A stretch of DNA of 64,000 nucleotides, from the NCBI RefSeq assembly GCF_000378145.1, contig NZ_KB899290.1, positions 1 to 64,000 of the forward strand, given 5' to 3'. The stretch comes from Saccharibacillus kuerlensis DSM 22868. Lineage in GTDB: Bacteria; Bacillota; Bacilli; Paenibacillales; Paenibacillaceae. Below the pieces are notes generated by a model. It worked only from the letters and a program-made list of their open reading frames with translations. It was not told where the DNA came from and ran no database searches. Positions 1 to 54,641 of the stretch are shown here, piece by piece; the first letter of the stretch is position 1, and each line of letters begins with the position of its first letter. The position numbers were made by a program, and so were the translations under genes.

Positions 1-72
1 ACTCCGCTCGACTTGCATGTATTAGGCATGCCGCCAGCGTTCGTCCTGAGCCAGGATCAAACTCTCCATTAA
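1..72 (-). rRNA. rrs: 16S ribosomal RNA, 5' end (partial)
   Basis: The reverse complement carries the universal 16S start AGAGTTTGATCCTGGCTCAG, then GACGAACGCTGGCGGC and CATGCAAGTCGAGCGG, which is the first part of bacterial 16S rRNA up to variable region V1. Only the 5' end is inside the window and the gene continues past position 1. The exact mature 5' end is estimated. Confidence 0.97.
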
Positions 73-2756: not shown

Positions 2757-5114
2757 TTATTCTACTTTGGTGATCGGCGCAAATCCGGCGAGCAGCCTTT
2801 TAATACCGACAGGCGCTTTGAACGCGATGTTCAGTTCCGTATCGTTGCCGCTGCCTTTAATCGATACAATCGTGCCTTCGCCCCATTTGCCGTGTGCGAC
2901 TTTGTCGCCGACCTGGAATGCGCCGGTATTGTTCGTACTGCGGGCAGCAGGCTGTCCGCCAGCCGGAGTAACGGTTACGCCGGAAGTCCGGGAAGCAACA
3001 GCCGGTCGGCCCATGCCGGTCGGCTGTGCACCTGCGCCTGTTCTTCCGCCGCGACCCATGCCTCCTGCGGAAGAAGAGCCTCCTCCAAAGTTGCGGCCTC
3101 CTCCGCGAGAATTGCCGTAACCTTTGTCCGGGTCGCTTCCGCGGCGGTAGCGATCCGGGTTAACGCCGGTATCTTCCTTGAGCTCGTCCGGTATTTCCTG
3201 CAGGAAACGCGATGGCGGATTGGCGGTGGTGCGTCCAAACAGTGTCCGCATCTGCGCGCAGGAAAGGTACAGCTGCTGCTCTGCGCGAGTAATACCTACA
3301 TAAGCCAGGCGACGTTCTTCTTCAAGCTCGTCATTATCAAGGAAAGCTCTGCTGTGCGGGAACACCCCTTCCTCCATACCGATGATGAACACGACCGGGA
3401 ACTCCAGACCTTTGGCGCTGTGCATCGTCATAAGGATCACCATGTCGTCGGACACTTCTTCCTTTTTGTCTCCCATGGAATCGATGTCCGCGATCAAAGC
3501 CAAGTCGGTGAGGAATGCAACCAGCGACTTCTCTTCATTGCGTGCTTCGAACTCCAGCGTAACGGACAGGAACTCGTCGATGTTTTCCACGCGGGCTTTG
3601 GATTCCAATGTGTTTTCCTTGTGCAGCTCAACCCGGTATTGGCTCATCTCCAAAATCTTCTCAGTTAGCTCCGTTACGGACAGGTAATCGACCATGCGAT
3701 GCAGAGATACGATCATATCGTAGAATTCAACAAGCGCATTACGCGTACGTCCGGCAAAGCCGAGGTCGTCGACCACTTCCAGCACTTTGAACATGGAAAT
3801 GCCCCGCTCCGTCGCCGCCGCAGCCAACTTGGCTACGCTCGTATCTCCGATTCCGCGCTTCGGTACGTTGATTACGCGCACCAAGCTGATATCGTCGTCC
3901 GGATTGGAGAGCAGTCTCAGATAAGCGAGCAGATCCTTGATTTCTTTGCGATCGTAGAACTTGATGCCGCCGACGATCTGGTACGGGATATCCGACTTGA
4001 TCAGAATTTCCTCGATAACCCGGGACTGGGCATTGGTGCGATACAGAACGGCATGGTCTTTGTAGTTCATGCCCTTTTTGATGTTTTTATGAATTTCTCC
4101 CGTAACAAAATAACCTTCGTCGTGCTCGGTACTGCCGCGGAATACGCGAAGCTTGGCTCCGCCTTCTTGATCGGTCCACAGATTTTTCGGCTTACGTCCG
4201 GTATTGCGGCCAATGACGCTGTTCGCTGCATTCAAAATATTCGCGGTAGAGCGGTAGTTCTGTTCAAGCAGGATCGTTTCGGCTTCCGGGTAATCTTTTT
4301 CAAAATTTAGGATGTTCGTAATATCGGCGCCCCGCCAGCGGTAGATAGACTGGTCGCTATCGCCCACGACGCAGATCTGATGATGCTTATCCGCCAACAT
4401 ACGGCACAGCATATACTGCGCACGGTTCGTATCCTGATATTCGTCGACATGAATGTAGCGGAATTTTTTCTGATAAAAGTCCAGCACTTCCGGTACTTCA
4501 TTAAACAGATCGATCGTCTTCATAATCAGATCGTCAAAATCAAGCGAATTGTTGCTGCGCAGTCTCTTCTGATACATGCCGTATACTTTGGCCGCGATCG
4601 ATTCCATAAAGTCACCGCCGGCTTTCTGTTCATACATTTTCGGCGTGATCAATTCGTTCTTCGCCGCGCTGATCAGAGCCTGAATCGCCTTCGGTTCGAA
4701 TTTCTTCGTATCGAGGTTCAAGTCCTTCATGCAGTTGCGGATAACGGAAAGTTGATCGCCCGAGTCGAGAATCGAAAAGCTGGACGAGAAGCCGATCCGG
4801 TCGATATCGCGGCGCAGAATACGTACGCACATGGAGTGGAACGTCGAGACCCAGATTTCTTTGCCTTCCGGGCCGACAAGCGCCGAGACCCGTTCCTGCA
4901 TTTCTCGGGCGGCTTTATTGGTAAACGTGATTGCCAAAATGCCCCATGGCGCTGTTTTCTTGGCACGGATCAGGTGAGCGATACGGTGCGTCAGCACGCG
5001 GGTCTTGCCGCTGCCTGCGCCAGCCATGATGAGCAGCGGGCCCTCTGTTTTGAGCGCGGCTTTACGCTGCTGCGGATTCAGGCGAGCAATCGATTCGTCG
5101 AGGTTAAAAGACAT
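2757..5114 (-). CDS. pcrA: ATP-dependent DNA helicase PcrA (UvrD/Rep family)
   Basis: A 3'-5' superfamily 1A helicase for repair, rolling-circle replication and removal of RNA polymerase or RecA from DNA. Of 785 residues, the first ~650 hold the Q motif (LNPQQRKAAL), Walker A (AGAGSGKT), DEYQDTN, QNYRS, the motif around TMHSAKGLEF and YVGITRAEQQLYLS. A long Gly/Ser/Arg-rich linker follows, then a C-terminal Tudor-like module (VGDKVAHGKWGEGTIVSIKG) that in PcrA contacts RNA polymerase. The ATG at 5114 follows AAAGGAG by 10 nt. pcrB lies upstream on the same strand, separated by about 690 bp rich in hairpins. Confidence 0.97.
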   Translation of the reverse strand: MSFNLDESIARLNPQQRKAALKTEGPLLIMAGAGSGKTRVLTHRIAHLIRAKKTAPWGILAITFTNKAAREMQERVSALVGPEGKEIWVSTFHSMCVRILRRDIDRIGFSSSFSILDSGDQLSVIRNCMKDLNLDTKKFEPKAIQALISAAKNELITPKMYEQKAGGDFMESIAAKVYGMYQKRLRSNNSLDFDDLIMKTIDLFNEVPEVLDFYQKKFRYIHVDEYQDTNRAQYMLCRMLADKHHQICVVGDSDQSIYRWRGADITNILNFEKDYPEAETILLEQNYRSTANILNAANSVIGRNTGRKPKNLWTDQEGGAKLRVFRGSTEHDEGYFVTGEIHKNIKKGMNYKDHAVLYRTNAQSRVIEEILIKSDIPYQIVGGIKFYDRKEIKDLLAYLRLLSNPDDDISLVRVINVPKRGIGDTSVAKLAAAATERGISMFKVLEVVDDLGFAGRTRNALVEFYDMIVSLHRMVDYLSVTELTEKILEMSQYRVELHKENTLESKARVENIDEFLSVTLEFEARNEEKSLVAFLTDLALIADIDSMGDKKEEVSDDMVILMTMHSAKGLEFPVVFIIGMEEGVFPHSRAFLDNDELEEERRLAYVGITRAEQQLYLSCAQMRTLFGRTTANPPSRFLQEIPDELKEDTGVNPDRYRRGSDPDKGYGNSRGGGRNFGGGSSSAGGMGRGGRTGAGAQPTGMGRPAVASRTSGVTVTPAGGQPAARSTNNTGAFQVGDKVAHGKWGEGTIVSIKGSGNDTELNIAFKAPVGIKRLLAGFAPITKVE

Positions 5115-5182
5115 GATGAAGGTGCTCCTTTCATTGTGCTTGGGAGACGCTTCGGGAGACGGGGGCCTTGCGATCGCCGTTC

Positions 5183-5228
5183 AAATTCGTTTTTCGGATT
5201 AGAGTTGAATAAGGTAAAAAACGAATTT
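5183..5228. repeat. 12-bp perfect inverted repeat (pcrA leader region)
   Basis: AAATTCGTTTTT (5183-5194) and AAAAACGAATTT (5217-5228) are perfect inverted copies around a 22-nt loop. It lies 70-115 bp upstream of the pcrA start and may be transcribed into the pcrA leader. It is followed by a second, larger inverted repeat. Confidence 0.7.
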
Positions 5229-5246
5229 AAAATGCGAATGCCTAAC

Positions 5247-5349
5247 GTACGTTGTCTCCGCTCAAAAGTAACGGTTATCGTCGAATGATTCGTTTACGCT
5301 TTAAGAACGAATCCTGCGCACGAAATTTGTATGGGTAGAGACAACGTAC
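5247..5349. repeat. Nested inverted repeat upstream of pcrA
   Basis: An outer 12-bp perfect pair, GTACGTTGTCTC (5247-5258) and GAGACAACGTAC (5338-5349), encloses an inner 8-bp pair, GATTCGTT (5287-5294) and AACGAATC (5306-5313). The topology resembles the multi-stem elements at 40161-40392 and 54490-54641. Sequence similarity to them is weak. Confidence 0.65.
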
Positions 5350-5411
5350 TCACTTCTCCAGGCTCCCCGCCTCCCTCCGCTCCGTTTGCACATTGAGTTC
5401 GGTTTGGTAAA

Positions 5412-37223: not shown

Positions 37224-40100
37224 TCATTTGCTTACCGATTGACGGTCGGGCTCCAGCTCAAGACGTGTCCGTTCCGTATCGCGTTCCAGTACCGGAGCCA
37301 GATAGTGTCCGGTATACGAACCTTTAACTTTTGCCACTTCTTCCGGCGTTCCGGTCGCCACGACGCTTCCGCCGCCGCTTCCGCCTTCCGGCCCCATATC
37401 GACCAAATAATCTGCCGTCTTGATCACATCCAGATTATGCTCGATCACAAGCACCGTATCGCCCGACTCTACCAACCGGTGCAGTACTGTGAGCAGCCGA
37501 TCGATATCGTCTACGTGCAGCCCGGTCGTTGGTTCGTCGAGGATATAGATCGTCTTGCCCGTACTGCGGCGGTGCAGCTCGGACGCAAGCTTCACCCGCT
37601 GCGCTTCGCCGCCGGACAGCGTCGTTGCCGGCTGACCCATTTTCACATAGCCGAGACCTACATCAAGCAGCGTCTGCAGCTTGCGGCTGATCTTCGGTAC
37701 GTTTTGGAAAAACTCGACCGCGTCTTCGATCGTCATCTCCAGCACGTCGGCAATGTTTTTGTTTTTGTACTTCACTTCCAGCGTTTCCCGATTGTAGCGT
37801 TTGCCTTTGCAGACTTCGCAGGGCACATAGATGTCCGGCAGGAAGTGCATTTCGATCTTGATAATGCCGTCGCCTTTGCAGGCTTCACAACGTCCGCCCT
37901 TCGTATTGAAGCTGAAGCGTCCCTTGAGATATCCCCGCATCTTCGCTTCGTTCGTCGTCGCAAACAAATCCCGGATATTATCGAATACGCCGGTATACGT
38001 GGCCGGATTGGAACGCGGCGTACGGCCGATCGGCGACTGGTCGACTTCGACTACTTTATCAATATGCTCCAGACCGCGGATCTCTTTGTGTTTGCCTGGC
38101 TTGACGCGGGCCCGGTTGAGATCGCGCGCAAGCGTCTTGTGCAGCACTTCGTTGACAAGCGACGACTTGCCGGAGCCCGAGACGCCTGTAACCGCAGTAA
38201 ACAGTCCGATCGGCACTTTGACGTTGACGTTGTTCAGGTTGTTCTCCTTGGCGCCCCGGATTTCGAGCCAGCGCTCACCAGGCTGACGCCGGTTCAGCGG
38301 CACCTGGATAAATCGGCGGCCGCTGAGGTACTGACCGGTCAGCGAATCCGGATTGTCCATCACTTCCTGCGGCGTTCCTTGAGCAATAATCTGTCCGCCG
38401 TGCACGCCGGCTCCCGGACCGATATCGATAATGTAATCGCAGGCCATCATCGTATCTTCGTCGTGCTCGACGACGATCAGCGTATTGCCGAGATCGCGCA
38501 TATGCGCCAGCGTCTTGATCAGCTGATCGTTATCGCGCTGGTGCAGGCCGATACTCGGTTCGTCCAGAATGTAGAGCACGCCCATAAGACTTGAACCGAT
38601 CTGCGTAGCCAAACGGATCCGCTGCGCTTCGCCGCCGGACAATGTGCCTGCCGCACGGCTGAGCGTCAGATAAGTAAGACCGACATTTTCAAGGAAGCCG
38701 AGACGGCTGCATACTTCTTTCAAAATCAGGTTCGCAATCGAGCGATCCTTCTCCGACAGTTCCAGCTGATTGAAGAACTCCGAAGCTTTGGAGATCGACA
38801 GGTCGGTTACATGAGCGATGTTCTCGCCGCCGACCGTCACTGCCAGAACTTCGCGCTTCAGACGTTTGCCTTTGCACGTACCGCACGGTTTGGTACCCAT
38901 AAAGCCTTCGATGTATTCGCGCATACTTTCGGACGAAGTATCGCGATAGCGGCGCTCCAGATTCGGAATGATGCCTTCGAACGCAACCGTTACTTCTTTA
39001 CTGCGGCCGAAGTCGCCCTCATAACGGAACTTCACTTTTTGTCCGTCGCTGCCGTACAGAATCTTGTTCTTCTGTTCTTGAGTCAGCTCGGCTACCGGCA
39101 CATTGGTCGGAATCTTATAATGCTCGCAGACCGCAGTCAGAAACTGCGGATAGTAGTTCGACAATCCGCCGCTCCAAGCGGTAAACGCACCTTCTTCGAT
39201 TGTCTTACGCTCATCGGGCACCAACAGATCCGGATCGACAACCATCTTGTGGCCGAGTCCATCGCAGTCCGGGCAGGCGCCGAACGGGCTGTTGAACGAG
39301 AACATCCGCGGCGACAGCTCTTCCATGCTGAATCCGCAGATCGGGCACGCGAAGTTCGAGCTGAACCGCAGTTCTTCCTGACCGATGATATCGACCAGCA
39401 GCTGACCGCCGGACAGTTTCAGCGCCGTCTCGATCGAATCGGCCAGGCGGGTCTGCACGTCTTCCTTGATTACAATTCGGTCGACGACGATCTCAACCGT
39501 ATGCTTTTTGTTTTTCTCCAGTTCGATACTTTCCGACAGATCGCGTAGCTCCCCGTCGACTCTCACACGAACAAAGCCCTGCTTCGAAATTTCGGTGAAC
39601 AGGCTCTTGTGCTCGCCTTTCTTACCTGAAATGACAGGCGCAAGAATCTGAAGACGGGTCTTCTCCGGAAACTGCATGATTCGGTCCACCATCTGTTCTA
39701 CAGTCTGGGAAGTGATCTCTACCCCGTGATCCGGACAGTGCGGCTTGCCGATACGGGCGAACAGCAGGCGCAGGTAGTCGTAAATCTCGGTTACGGTACC
39801 GACAGTCGAACGCGGATTGCGGCTGGTCGTCTTCTGATCGATTGAAATAGCGGGAGACAGTCCTTCAATGGAGTCTACGTCCGGTTTTTCCATCTGACCG
39901 AGAAACTGTCTTGCATACGCGGACAACGATTCTACGTAGCGGCGCTGTCCCTCAGCGTATATGGTATCGAATGCAAGCGAAGACTTGCCCGAGCCGCTAA
40001 GCCCGGTGAGAACGACGAATCGATCCCGGGGGATTGTGACGTCAATATTTTTTAAGTTGTGTGCTCTGGCACCTTTAATGATAATATTTTCGCTTGCCAC
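37224..40100 (-). CDS. uvrA: Excinuclease ABC subunit UvrA
   Basis: 958-residue damage-recognition ATPase of nucleotide excision repair; works with UvrB. It has two ABC modules: Walker [13 protein letters not shown] and [14 protein letters not shown], signatures [13 protein letters not shown] and [13 protein letters not shown]. It also has zinc-binding Cys pairs ([26 protein letters not shown]). The GTG start at 40100 is preferred over a TTG at 40109: GGAGG sits 9 nt upstream and the N terminus then reads like other UvrAs ([19 protein letters not shown]). It lies downstream of uvrB with a 555-bp spacer full of palindromes, unlike the tight uvrBA pair of many Firmicutes. Confidence 0.97.
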
Positions 40101-40160
40101 CGGCCTCAACCTCCACAGTTATGCTTTTTTGTGCGACTTTCCGCGGGTATGCGGCTTATT

Positions 40161-40392
40161 GAAAAAGATCGGGATTGGGCGCCGGATTCAAGGTAGGCAT
40201 TAGCGGGGAGACGCTGCGTCTCCGGTTGTATCCTTACGATCGCGTGTTAAATTCGGATTTCTTCGATTATATTTTTCATGGGAGAAATCCGAATTCAAAG
40301 GCGAACGCTTCGCTTCTTCAGGATACAATCTGCGCCTTCGCTGCTGTCAGCGATATGCCTACCGTTGAATCAATAGCCTGTTGATCTTTTTC
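40161..40392. repeat. Long multi-stem palindromic element between uvrB and uvrA
   Basis: Four nested inverted repeats on one axis. GAAAAAGATC (40161-40170) pairs with 40383-40392. GATTCAAGGTAGGCAT (40185-40200) pairs with 40355-40371, with one bulge. TTGTATCCT (40226-40234) pairs with 40320-40328. AATTCGGATTTCT (40250-40262) pairs with 40283-40295. The unpaired segment GGCGAACGCTTCGCTTCTTC (40300-40319) is conserved in the element at 54490-54641. A small GGAGACG/CGTCTCC hairpin (about 40207-40223) lies in the left spacer. Confidence 0.85.
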
Positions 40393-40429: not shown

Positions 40430-40463
40430 TGGAAAAAGATTGCGTCCGCAGGGCTGCGGACGC
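40430..40463 (-). terminator. Probable terminator of uvrB
   Basis: GCGTCCGCA (40442-40450) and TGCGGACGC (40455-40463) make a 9-bp GC-rich stem with a 4-nt loop. On the minus strand it is followed by AATCTTTTTCC. It lies about 190 bp past the uvrB stop; the stretch between (40490-40640) is a degenerate GA-rich repeat with no gene. Confidence 0.6.
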
Positions 40464-40654: not shown

Positions 40655-42649
40655 TTAATCCGCGGCTTTGAGCTCCAGCAGAGCATCCCGCAGTTCGGCG
40701 GCGCGTTCGAAGTTGAGCGCTTTGGCGGATTCTTTCATTTCTTTCTCGAGGCGCATGACCATCTTCTCGCGTTCCTTCCTCGTCATCTTGCCTTCCGCTC
40801 CCGACAGGAAATCTGTTCCGCTCTCGGCAGCCTTGGTCGCTTCGATCACGTCGCGAACTTTCTTTTTGATCGTCTGCGGTGTGACGCCGTGCTCCTCGTT
40901 GTAGGCAATCTGGATCGCACGGCGGCGCTCCGTCTCCTTCATCGCTTTGTCCATCGACTCGGTAATTTTGTCGGCATACAGGATAACGCGCCCTTCAGAG
41001 TTACGGGCGGCGCGGCCGATGGTCTGAATCAGCGAGCGTTCCGAACGCAGGAAGCCTTCCTTGTCGGCATCGAGAATGGTCACGAGCGACACTTCCGGCA
41101 GATCGAGCCCTTCTCTCAGCAGGTTGATGCCGACCAAGACATGGAATACGCCGAGCCGCAGGTCGCGCAGAATCGCAATCCGCTCCAGCGTCTTGATGTC
41201 GGAGTGCAGGTAGCGCACCTTGATGCCGATCTCCTTAAGATAATCGGTCAGGTCTTCCGACATCTTCTTGGTCAATGTCGTGACGAGAACCCGTTCATCG
41301 CGCTCGATCCGGAGCTGAATCTCGCTGATCAAATCATCGATCTGACCTTCAGTCTTACGCACTTCGATAATCGGATCAAGCAGACCTGTCGGCCGAATAA
41401 TCTGTTCGACCATCGTTTCGCAGTGCTCGATCTCGTAAGGTCCTGGTGTCGCCGAAACGTAGATCAGCTGGTTCGCCTTTTCTTCGAACTCTTCAAACTT
41501 CAGCGGCCGGTTATCCAGCGCTGAAGGCAGACGGAATCCGTGATCGACGAGCACATTTTTACGTGCTTGGTCACCATTGTACATCGCGCGAATCTGCGGC
41601 AGCGTTACGTGCGATTCGTCAATCACGATCAGCATGTCGTCCGGGAAGTAATCGAGCAGCGTAAAAGGCGTTGCCCCGCGCTCGCGGAATGTCAGCGGTC
41701 CCGAGTAGTTTTCGATACCGGAGCAGAACCCCACTTCCTTCATCATCTCGATGTCGTAACGTGTGCGCTGCTCCAGCCGCTGTGCTTCCAGCAGTTTGCC
41801 CTGCTCATGGAATACGGCCAGACGTTCTTCCAGCTCCCGCTCAATGTTTTTGATTGCGATCTTCATCGTTTCTTCCCGCGTAACGAAGTGAGACGCCGGG
41901 AAGATCGCAATATGCTCGCGCTCGGCTACGATTTCTCCGGTCAGCACATCAATCTCCGTAATACGTTCGATCTCATCACCGAACAGCTCGATCCGTACCG
42001 CCTGTTCATCTCTCGAAGCTGGGAAGATTTCAACGACGTCGCCCCGCACTCTGAAAGTACCACGGACAAAATTGATATCATTACGCTGGTACTGAATGTC
42101 TACCAACCGAGACAAAATGTCCTGCCGGGACTTTTCCATGCCGACCCGCAGCGACAGCAGCAGATTGCCGTATTCCTGCGGAGAACCGAGGCCGTAAATG
42201 CAGGATACGCTGGCTACAATCACTACATCGCGCCGTTCGAACAATGAGCTGGTCGCCGAGTGGCGCAGCTTGTCGATTTCTTCATTAATGCTTGAATCCT
42301 TCTCGATATACGTATCGGAGGAAGGCACATACGCCTCCGGCTGATAGTAATCGTAGTAGCTGACAAAGTAATCGACGGAGTTGTTCGGCAAAAAGTCCTT
42401 GAATTCGCTGGCTAACTGGGCAGCAAGTGTCTTGTTATGGGCGATGACGAGCGTCGGCCGGCCAAGCTTCGCGATCGTTTGGGCGATCGTGAACGTCTTA
42501 CCTGTACCGGTTGCACCGAGCAGCGTCTGGTGTTTCTTACCCGCTTGTACACCTTCGACCAACTCTTCGATCGCAGTCGGCTGGTCGCCCTGCGGCGAAA
42601 ATTCCGAGACGATTTCAAACGCTTTATTACTGATTACAATATCGCTCAT
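40655..42649 (-). CDS. uvrB: Excinuclease ABC subunit UvrB
   Basis: 664-residue helicase-like damage-verification subunit. The N terminus [20 protein letters not shown], Walker [14 protein letters not shown], the beta-hairpin region [15 protein letters not shown], helicase motifs ([31 protein letters not shown]) and a C-terminal UVR motif ([21 protein letters not shown], given here in part) are all present. The ATG at 42649 gives the standard N terminus; a 40-codon upstream extension is rejected. The leader contains a terminator-like hairpin. No clear DinR/LexA box (GAAC-N4-GTTC type) was seen upstream. Confidence 0.97.
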
Positions 42650-43045
42650 TGGCCCTATTTCACCCTTATCTATTGAAGTGATAGTATTTTGAACAGAGAA
42701 TACGAAAAAAACCGGCGTATCGCTTTCGTTTGACACGCCGTCCGGATGCTTTATATTGTACATAACCACATTTTTTCGCGTGGAAAACGAACGGACAAAA
42801 TGCCGTACAGGTCCAAAACGGCGAAAAACGCCCGTTCTTCAGGCGATTCCACCTGCTGTGCAGCAGGTTAAAAAAATCGGATTATGCCTTGAAACGAAGC
42901 GAAGGTCAATTTTGAAAAAAGAAAAAGCTTCATACAATAAGAATACTTGTTCCCGTTAAGTATACTCTTTTTCTCCAGTCGATGCAATTATTTATGAAAA
43001 CGAAAAAGCTTATTTCAAGCTTTTGCCACAGAGAGGAACGAATGT
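42650..43045. other. Divergent uvrB / motA intergenic region
   Basis: About 396 bp with no supported gene. Besides the uvrB-leader hairpin it holds the palindrome ACCTGCTG-tg-CAGCAGGT (42851-42868). A possible sigma-D-like motAB promoter (TAAG at 42957-42960, GTCGATGC at 42978-42985) has imperfect spacing. A hairpin AAAAGCTT/AAGCTTTT lies at 43004-43024 just before the motA ribosome site. Confidence 0.45.
42705..42740 (-). terminator. Terminator-like hairpin in the uvrB leader
   Basis: On the minus strand CGGCGTGTC (42740-42732) pairs with GATACGCCG (42721-42713) with one G-U pair and a 10-nt loop, followed by GTTTTTTTC. No minus-strand gene lies directly upstream (motA is divergent). It therefore sits between the likely uvrB promoter and its ATG, 56-91 nt before the start. 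Confidence 0.6.
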
Positions 43046-53722: not shown

Positions 53723-54478
53723 CTAACCGATCAGCGAGAAATACCCGCCGATAATCTGCGTTCCGTACAAGTAAGCAATTAGTGTGCCCAGTGCAAGCCA
53801 CGGACCGAAAGGAACGGGCTGACGACGCTGCACAATTTTGAAAAAGATAAGCAATATGCCGACGACTGTCCCGAATGCGCAGGCTAACATAAAAGCAAGC
53901 ACTGCAGGACCGATGCCAAGCACAAGTCCGCATAATGCAAATAATTTGACGTCTCCCATACCCATGCCGCCTCGGGTGAGCAGTACAATCAGCAGAATCA
54001 ATCCGCCGCCGAATATCCCTCCGAGCGCATAATGCCACCATGGCGCTTCCATAAACATAAATCGAAGCCCAATGAGGATCGGCGCGAAAAACAAAAGCAC
54101 TTTATTAGGAATGAGCATATATTTCAAATCCGCAACCGTGACGATGACGCACAAGCTGGCAAGTACAATGCCGATCGCAGCCGCCCCCGTCAAACCGAAG
54201 CGGAGAAACATCCATAGAAAGAGAACCCCGGTCGCCGCCTCAAACAGCGGGTAGATCGGTGAGAATTTGATGCCGCAGTGTCTGCATTTGCCTAGTGAAA
54301 AAATATAGCTGAATACCGGAACCATGTCTTTGGCACCCAAACGTATACCGCAGTTTCCGCAGCGGGACGGCGGGTGTACGACGGATTCGCCGACAGGGAC
54401 TCTGAGTCCGACAACGTTGAAGAAAGAACCGAATAACAAGCCGATGATGGTGATGTAGGTTGCGATGAAGATCGTCAT
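53723..54478 (-). CDS. pilD: Prepilin peptidase / N-methyltransferase (PilD-type)
   Basis: 251 residues, eight hydrophobic segments. The cytoplasmic N-terminal loop has two CxxC pairs (CGNCGIRLG, CRHCGIKF). The catalytic aspartates lie in VADLKYMLIPN and GMGMGDVKLFA (GxGD). Cleaves the prepilin leader at G^F and N-methylates the new Phe. The substrate is PilA directly upstream, separated by a terminator and palindromic element of about 280 bp. Confidence 0.95.
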   Translation of the reverse strand: MTIFIATYITIIGLLFGSFFNVVGLRVPVGESVVHPPSRCGNCGIRLGAKDMVPVFSYIFSLGKCRHCGIKFSPIYPLFEAATGVLFLWMFLRFGLTGAAAIGIVLASLCVIVTVADLKYMLIPNKVLLFFAPILIGLRFMFMEAPWWHYALGGIFGGGLILLIVLLTRGGMGMGDVKLFALCGLVLGIGPAVLAFMLACAFGTVVGILLIFFKIVQRRQPVPFGPWLALGTLIAYLYGTQIIGGYFSLIG

Positions 54479-54489
54479 AAGTAGTAAGG

Positions 54490-54641
54490 GATTGGAATAA
54501 GGCGCTGCCGTCTAAAAGGTTGTTCCAATCGCTGTTCCCCTCCAATTTCCTGATGAGATTAGGCAAAGGGAGAAATTGGAGGGTAAAGGCGACCGCTCCG
54601 CTTTTCCACAATCCTTTTAGCCTTCCGCTGGAATTCCAATC
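54490..54641. repeat. Multi-stem palindromic element between pilA and pilD
   Basis: Three nested perfect stems on one axis: GATTGGAAT (54490-54498) with 54633-54641, CTAAAAGG (54512-54519) with 54613-54620, and CCTCCAATTTC (54539-54549) with 54572-54582. The unpaired segment GGCGACCGCTCCGCTTTTCC (54588-54607) matches 16 of 20 bases of the one in the uvrA-uvrB element and sits in the same topological place, after AAA. Stem sequences of the two elements are unrelated. Confidence 0.85.

What the first reader, a model, noticed from the sequence alone, without database searches (positions are those of the whole stretch)
40161..40392. Family of long multi-stem palindromic elements with a conserved unpaired core (uvrB-uvrA and pilA-pilD spacers)
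Seen: the element at 40161-40392 has four nested stems, that at 54490-54641 three. Stem sequences differ fully between the two, but each pairs with itself. The unpaired segment following the innermost right arm is conserved (GGCGAACGCTTCGCTTCTTC against GGCGACCGCTCCGCTTTTCC, 16 of 20) and is preceded by AAA in both. Flanking bits (GACGCTGCGTCT / GGCGCTGCCGTCT; GCGCCTTCGCTG / TAGCCTTCCGCTG) also look related. Conserved single strands plus compensated stems suggest selection on structure: a structured RNA, or a mobile palindromic repeat.
Basis: seen in the sequence. Interest (0 to 1): 0.62.

Follow-up and report, generated by a model that had tools for sequence, protein, structure and literature searches.

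The report
Mobile hairpin repeats with RNA-like core
The two odd palindromes belong to a large, apparently undescribed family of jumping DNA repeats found in Paenibacillus and its relatives, whose arms change freely but keep pairing around a nearly unchanging core, as expected of a working RNA rather than of junk DNA.

Summary
Confirmed and extended. Both elements belong to one family. A covariance model lists 60 matches (E<1e-10) in this genome, including a third copy in the window before pcrA, and hits 124 of 148 genomes of its family (Paenibacillaceae) but, in a class-wide sample, 12 of 151, all in that family. 27 of 32 pairs change on both sides. The uvrB-uvrA element is orthologous in 8 of the 10 closest genomes: core 96% identical, stem P1 only 73% identical yet 98% paired. 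Isolated A.C mismatches outnumber G.T (27 to 8 clusters), pointing to RNA of the opposite strand, the sense strand of uvrA, pilD and pcrA; two covariance-model checks did not show this. The family is also mobile: one subfamily has transposon-type ends, lies between duplicated terminator hairpins in 22 of 26 cases, and shares ends and target with an insertion sequence of sister species. The window copies lack those ends. Rfam has no match; nine literature searches found no description. Best reading: a MITE-type repeat carrying a structured RNA module, often just upstream of genes. What the RNA does, and whether it is transcribed, is untested.

The parts
40161..40392 (-). Full element in the uvrB-uvrA spacer; strand given is the inferred functional (RNA) strand, the same as uvrB and uvrA
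   Evidence: (R1 98.8 bits for 40210-40348)
40224..40330 (-). Stem P1 (40224-40234 with 40320-40330): sequence free, pairing kept between orthologues
   Evidence: 4 of 11 pairs with change on both sides, 97.7% of cells paired; 73% identity
40240..40304 (-). Nearly invariant stem P2 (40240-40243 with 40301-40304, TCGC/GCGA)
40247..40298 (-). Inner stem P3 (40247-40262 with 40283-40298) with variable loop
40297..40319 (-).
40207..40218 (-). Conserved element base, 5' side in + orientation (GGAGACGCTGCG), partner TTCGCTG at 40337-40343
54490..54641 (-). Second element, pilA-pilD spacer; functional strand same as both genes
   Evidence: 86.4 bits
54585..54607 (-). Conserved core of the second element
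5142..5384 (-). Third element, directly upstream of pcrA (start codon at 5114, minus strand)
   Evidence: (R1 56.8 bits for 5146-5268)
5245..5349 (.). Palindromic insertion (ACGTACGTTGTCTC ... GAGACAACGTAC) at the mini-hairpin position of the third element, separating its P1 arms (5154-5167 and 5361-5375)
37224..40109 (-). uvrA, gene downstream of the first element (ORF as listed; my reading of the start is the GTG at about 40100)
40655..42769 (-). uvrB, gene upstream of the first element
40442..40463 (.). Terminator-like hairpin, scored on both strands, between uvrB and the element
53723..54478 (-). Prepilin peptidase (pilD-type), gene downstream of the second element
2757..5114 (-). pcrA/UvrD-type helicase, gene downstream of the third element (this ORF was not scanned itself; its G139 homologue is PF00580)

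Best explanation
A family of short non-coding mobile repeats (about 150-310 bp), restricted as far as tested to Paenibacillaceae. Each copy carries a structured module: stem P1, a junction with a nearly invariant stem P2 and a small hairpin P4, then a long stem P3, with conserved unpaired bases in the junction. SHOWN: family, distribution, compensatory change in the stems, orthologous retention with core conservation, and mobility marks of one subfamily (transposon-type inverted ends shared with a DDE insertion sequence, insertion at terminator hairpins with duplication of the whole hairpin). I commit to a structured leader or spacer that sets processing or stability of that mRNA (RNase III-type cutting or end protection), spread by transposases acting in trans and then kept at some sites. 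The window copies look like old, no longer mobile members, about 11, 27 and 61 nt before the starts of pilD, pcrA and uvrA.
For: 60 of 77 listed matches at E<1e-10 in own genome; 124 of 148 family genomes. Covariation: 27 of 32 pairs, score 0.491 against 0.189 shuffled and at most 0.290 slid. Orthologues at uvrB-uvrA: 19 cells changed on both sides against 7.5 shuffled, 99.2% paired; core 0.956 identical, P1 0.726, flanks 0.718 and 0.744 with shuffled background 0.675. Isolated mismatches A.C 51 contexts/27 clusters against G.T 9/8 (a few of both kinds lie in flanking hairpins). Sense to the upstream gene in 102 of 127 copies; in nine further genomes sense to upstream 103 of 137 and to downstream 104 of 140, and in 65 of 89 sense co-directional copies the model edge lies 32-106 nt before the start codon. 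Mobility: 22 of 26 subfamily-2 copies between duplicated terminator hairpins; clean empty sites with one hairpin in 5 of 9 and 4 of 9 sister genomes at two loci; insertion sequence with the same ends and target.
Against: No transcript data; RNA is inferred. The strand inference is not unanimous: a count on a CM alignment gave A.C 77 against G.T 59 (20 of the 77 from one column), and models of the two strands score about equally by eye. Orientation follows replication as well as genes (107 of 140 with the fork; genes on the lagging strand 11 sense to 10 antisense), so a single-stranded DNA role is not excluded. 30 downstream genes have no common function. The site is dispensable: G081 lacks most of the element, G108 all of it, and it was not found at this site in five more distant genomes of the same genus label or in other genera. 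The window copies lack the subfamily-2 ends and any demonstrated target duplication. No PF13751 transposase was found in the own genome.
Confidence: 0.62

Rival explanations
1. DNA-level element: the hairpin forms in single-stranded or cruciform DNA and is a recognition structure for a transposase, recombinase or nucleoid protein; the RNA plays no role.
For: Inverted ends and insertion at hairpins; orientation tracks the replication fork in 107 of 140 copies; CM scores do not separate the strands.
Against: Excess of isolated A.C over G.T mismatches, although G.T may also be tolerated in one given DNA strand; the core was not found in the insertion sequences that share the subfamily-2 ends, so the core is probably not needed for transposition by that enzyme.
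Confidence: 0.22
2. Neutral palindrome upkeep: template switching or gene conversion between the arms keeps the arms complementary; no selection on structure.
For: Known to homogenise quasi-palindromes (recalled, no call); several layers of nested inverted repeats are present.
Against: The junction bases and P2 are among the most conserved parts, which arm conversion does not explain; mismatch asymmetry; changes on both sides at one orthologous site while the core stays fixed.
Confidence: 0.07
3. The core is a riboswitch-like sensor or other dedicated cis-regulator of the downstream genes.
For: Model edge 32-106 nt before the start codon in 65 of 89 sense co-directional copies; a copy before pcrA in 10 of 30 further genomes, all 8 sampled of genus g7 among them.
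Against: Copy number 18-113 per genome in seven genomes before unrelated genes; losses at orthologous sites.
Confidence: 0.08

Closest known systems
Bacillus cereus group repeats bcr1-bcr3 (MITE-like) and bcr10/bcr18 (predicted RNA elements)
   Same: Short interspersed repeats of a Bacillales group; bcr1 has 11 to 130 copies per genome; MITE-like members; 40-51% of copies transcribed, many in UTRs (passages of PMC3446304 and PMC6542083).
   Different: Our model hits no genome outside the window's own family in a 151-genome class sample. Arms here are replaced wholesale with pairing kept, and the ends differ between genera. No bcr sequence was compared directly.
MITEs of IS1182-type insertion sequences; IS1272 stem-loop-directed transposition
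   Same: Target is a stem-loop of arbitrary sequence; [quoted passage not shown]
   Different: IS1272 itself was reported to replace its target without duplication. The structured core was not found in the partner insertion sequences. That PF13751 means IS1182 family is recalled, not tested.
BOX, ERIC and Correia elements
   Same: Small structured interspersed repeats near genes; Correia and ERIC copies affect RNase cutting of transcripts (review PMC10969869, passages).
   Different: Known from other bacterial groups; no sequence relation tested; no comparable conserved junction is known to me (recall).

Membership tests
MITE (non-autonomous DNA transposon) | Non-coding, under 500 bp, many dispersed copies | tested here: met
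   (subfamily-2 end-to-end lengths 192-308 bp)
MITE (non-autonomous DNA transposon) | Terminal inverted repeats shared with an autonomous element | tested here: met
   Subfamily 2 only: GGCTGTCGAGAAAGTC against GGCTGTCGAGAAACTC of the PF13751 insertion sequences L261, L262, L265. The window copies do not carry these ends.
MITE (non-autonomous DNA transposon) | Target site duplication and empty orthologous site | tested here: met
   Subfamily 2: 22 of 26; single hairpin at empty sites. Not found for the window copies.
MITE (non-autonomous DNA transposon) | Transposition observed | not testable with these tools
   needs an assay
Any of 4227 Rfam families | Score at or above the gathering threshold | tested here: not met
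   Searches (whole window; uvr spacer; 15 further loci): no element match at threshold; sub-threshold hits were microRNA models, a snoRNA model and one Bacillus sRNA model outside the core of L038
Riboswitch or other dedicated cis-regulatory RNA | Coherent set of downstream genes | tested here: not met
   30 downstream proteins scanned of 95 extracted; 29 had Pfam hits, of unrelated functions
bcr repeats of the B. cereus group | Sequence or structure homology | tested here: inconclusive
   no hit outside family f1 among 151 class genomes; bcr sequences themselves not compared
REP/RAYT elements | GTAG or CGTC tag and a RAYT transposase gene | not tested
   no search for RAYT was run

The most novel reading that the evidence does not exclude
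It lands in terminators and leaders, where its activity lets the host tolerate or use the insertion, and old copies become fixed regulatory leaders of genes such as uvrA and pcrA.
Probability: 0.2. Interest if true: 0.85.

Novelty: new variant of a known kind. Interest (0 to 1): 0.62.

Why it matters
Up to 113 copies per genome of an apparently undescribed structured element, many of them close to start codons (uvrA, pcrA and ligA among the genes seen), would affect mRNA annotation, operon prediction and genetic engineering in Paenibacillaceae. The family gives a clean system to ask why a mobile element keeps an RNA fold, and the terminator-hairpin duplication supplies natural examples of a pathway that had been proposed for stem-loop-directed transposition.

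Tried and rejected
Rfam: no family. Chance palindromes: rejected by copy number and covariation. I rely on the stricter isolated-mismatch count, and this weakens the strand claim; of the 27 A.C and 8 G.T clusters, at least three and one respectively lie in flanking terminator hairpins rather than in the element. Looser ungapped counts were uneven: in the outer stem of subfamily 1 one search gave A.C 17 to G.T 19, probably because it ignored a bulge; the gapped count gave 30 to 6 there, and 10 to 8 in the inner stem of subfamily 2. Gene orientation and replication could not be separated; the replichore boundary was taken as half the contig, which is rough. The two context tables differ in one respect: convergent to divergent gene pairs are 31 to 5 but 14 to 14. 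A first ORF-based context table misread known genes and was replaced. The pil element's fold alone is not significant. Four loci hit by the DNA pattern (MAGs named Caldithrix, Gammaproteobacteria and Leptolyngbya) had no model match and were dropped (4 of 80 loci). 37 of the 117 pattern stretches were not given to the model, nor were the 47 viral-contig stretches.

Literature: nine searches of the open-access library found no description of this family in their listings; most subscription papers are not held. Papers seen as passages only: PMC5678879 (also outline and abstract), PMC10969869, PMC3446304, PMC6542083, PMC2267715.

Full report
OBSERVATION. Both elements exist as described. The uvr element folds far better than shuffles (z -6.5, 0 of 200), the pil element only slightly (z -1.7, 8 of 200). 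A degenerate pattern of the core with up to 3 mismatches hit the own genome 18 times against 1 for the reversed control (several of the 3-mismatch hits are not copies), and blastn with the uvr element found many partial relatives.

THE FAMILY. I aligned 28 copies of the own genome and built covariance model R1. RNAalifold gives 32 pairs, 27 of them with changes on both sides. On the same structure the covariation score is 0.491 against 0.189 (sd 0.012) for shuffles and at most 0.290 for slid partners, and 89.6% of cells pair against 71.3%. The third is split by a palindromic insertion at 5245-5349; its second P1 arm lies at 5361-5375. In the own genome 60 of 77 listed matches have E below 1e-10; four lie at contig ends and may be halves of shared copies. 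In the family 124 of 148 genomes match (at most 22 candidates per genome were scored there). Seven genomes searched more fully hold 18-113 copies at E up to 1e-10. In a class sample 12 of 151 genomes match, all 12 in the window's own family. I gave 80 of them to R1 and 76 matched, all titled Paenibacillus, Saccharibacillus or Fontibacillus; the 4 misses are MAGs of other phyla. The pattern also hit 47 viral-contig stretches, which were not given to R1.

ANATOMY. Written on the inferred functional strand: AGCGGAG - P1 - GAAGAAGCGAAGCGTTCGCCTTTG - P3 - loop - P3' - CAACACGCGATCG - linker - P1' - CGCAGCGTCTC. P2 is TCGC/GCGA and hardly varies. P4 is a 2-bp mini-hairpin that appears as GC/GC, AC/GT or AT/AT. 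Two subfamilies occur in the own genome: SF1, to which the window copies belong, and SF2, with ends GGCTGTCGAGAAAGTC. A variant with GACGC/GCGTC in place of TCGC/GCGA was seen by eye in L228, L229, L284 and L285 and was not counted.

ORTHOLOGY. The end of uvrB was found in all 39 genomes searched and 30 loci were fetched. R1 finds the element in the spacer of 8 of the 10 genomes nearest to the window (87-100% identical in the query) and in none of the other 20 loci, five of which are more distant genomes of the same genus label. G081 lacks most of it: compared with its sister G124 the segment between two TCCGG repeats is missing, most simply a deletion. G108 has none. In the 8 orthologues, 6 of 31 pairs change on both sides, 19 cells against 7.5 in shuffles, and 99.2% of cells pair. 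Core identity is 0.956, P3 0.955, P1 0.726, terminal loop 0.531, flanks 0.718 and 0.744, shuffled background 0.675. So P1 is as free in sequence as the flank but stays paired, while the junction stays fixed. Upstream of pcrA, R1 finds a copy in 10 of 30 further genomes: all 8 sampled of genus g7, 1 of 4 of g13, and a partial one (35 bits) in G132.

RNA OR DNA, AND WHICH STRAND. With flank 4 the numbers are 87 and 40, where other mismatch types give 5-34 contexts each, so most of the 40 may be background. This favours the opposite strand. Against it: a CM alignment gave 77 to 59, and models of both strands score alike. The favoured strand is the sense strand of uvrB/uvrA, pilA/pilD and pcrA. 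Of 168 regex-selected copies 127 could be placed between called genes (7 overlapped a call, 7 lacked a gene, 27 were too near a locus end): co-directional genes 71 sense and 20 antisense, convergent 31, divergent 5. In 140 copies chosen from the printed hits of nine genomes: sense to the upstream gene 103 of 137, to the downstream gene 104 of 140, with the replication fork 107 of 140; convergent 14, divergent 14. For co-directional genes on the leading strand 78 are sense and 10 antisense; on the lagging strand 11 and 10. Gene and replication effects are therefore not separated. In 65 of the 89 sense co-directional copies the model edge lies 32-106 nt before the start codon. I scanned 30 of 95 extracted downstream proteins; their functions are unrelated.

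MOBILITY. Among loci on hand, 26 distinct elements have SF2-type ends; 22 are flanked by direct copies (12-35 bp) of a locus-specific terminator hairpin; L040, L103, L140 and L219 are not convincing. At one such site 5 of 9 sister genomes (L279-L283) hold a single terminator and no element, L287 a single terminator followed by what may be an end remnant, and 3 (L284-L286) other family members. At a second, 4 of 9 (L270, L274, L276, L277) are empty with one terminator, L275 keeps only an end remnant, and 4 carry a copy in the other orientation. PF13751 transposases occur above cut-off in 4 of 16 genomes of the genus sample, not in the own genome. Insertion sequences L261, L262 and L265 have ends GGCTGTCGAGAAACTC and are themselves flanked by duplicated terminator hairpins; L267, more distant, too; L260 has the ends but different flanking hairpins. 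The core was not found inside these sequences; L262 has a family member beside it. This fits the stem-loop-duplicating branch of the model proposed for IS1272 (PMC5678879, passages). Copies of genus g7 have other ends (CTATATAGATTGAACTAAA...), so the same core sits in different chassis. Some SF2 copies carry extra modules in the inner stem, linker and core.

CONCLUSION. Well supported: one family, mobile at least in SF2, with a core and pairing under long-term constraint. Inferred: action as RNA on the minus strand of the window. Open: what the RNA does. In B. cereus, 84 of 165 and 62 of 155 repeats of the bcr families were seen in transcripts of two strains, many in UTRs, and one family (bcr3) correlates with mRNA decay (PMC3446304, passages); this is the basis for my commitment to a processing or stability role, which is an analogy and not a test.

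Noticed in passing
window 5142-5384: Third family member directly upstream of pcrA, interrupted at its mini-hairpin by a 105-bp palindromic insertion (5245-5349).
   Followed up: partly
L047 (own genome), L217 (G124): The two copies of a duplicated terminator hairpin differ by compensated changes (for example A-T in one copy, G-C in the other), as if both hairpins stayed under selection after duplication.
   Followed up: no
G090:C1:5421632-5422132; G118:C1:3685850-3686665: Tandem arrays of three and four element copies spaced about 183 and 226 bp.
   Followed up: no
L496, L503, L504, L506, L525 (IMG/VR contigs): The DNA pattern matches at nearly the same position (about base 607-678 of the fetched stretch) in five viral contigs with similar flanks; L504 and L525 are whole contigs, so there it lies near one end. 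Suggests a conserved copy in or beside a prophage.
   Followed up: no
L037, L046, L050, L052, L056, L057, L068: Copies with extra modules in inner stem, linker and core; two of the modules resemble each other (CTTTCGNAGAAAG followed by TCGNAAGCAT on the functional strand) and may be a nested smaller repeat.
   Followed up: partly
L228, L229, L284, L285: Variant elements with GACGC/GCGTC in place of TCGC/GCGA and without the mini-hairpin, which would be a covariation in P2.
   Followed up: partly
window 1-72, minus strand: End of a 16S rRNA gene at the window edge.
   Followed up: no
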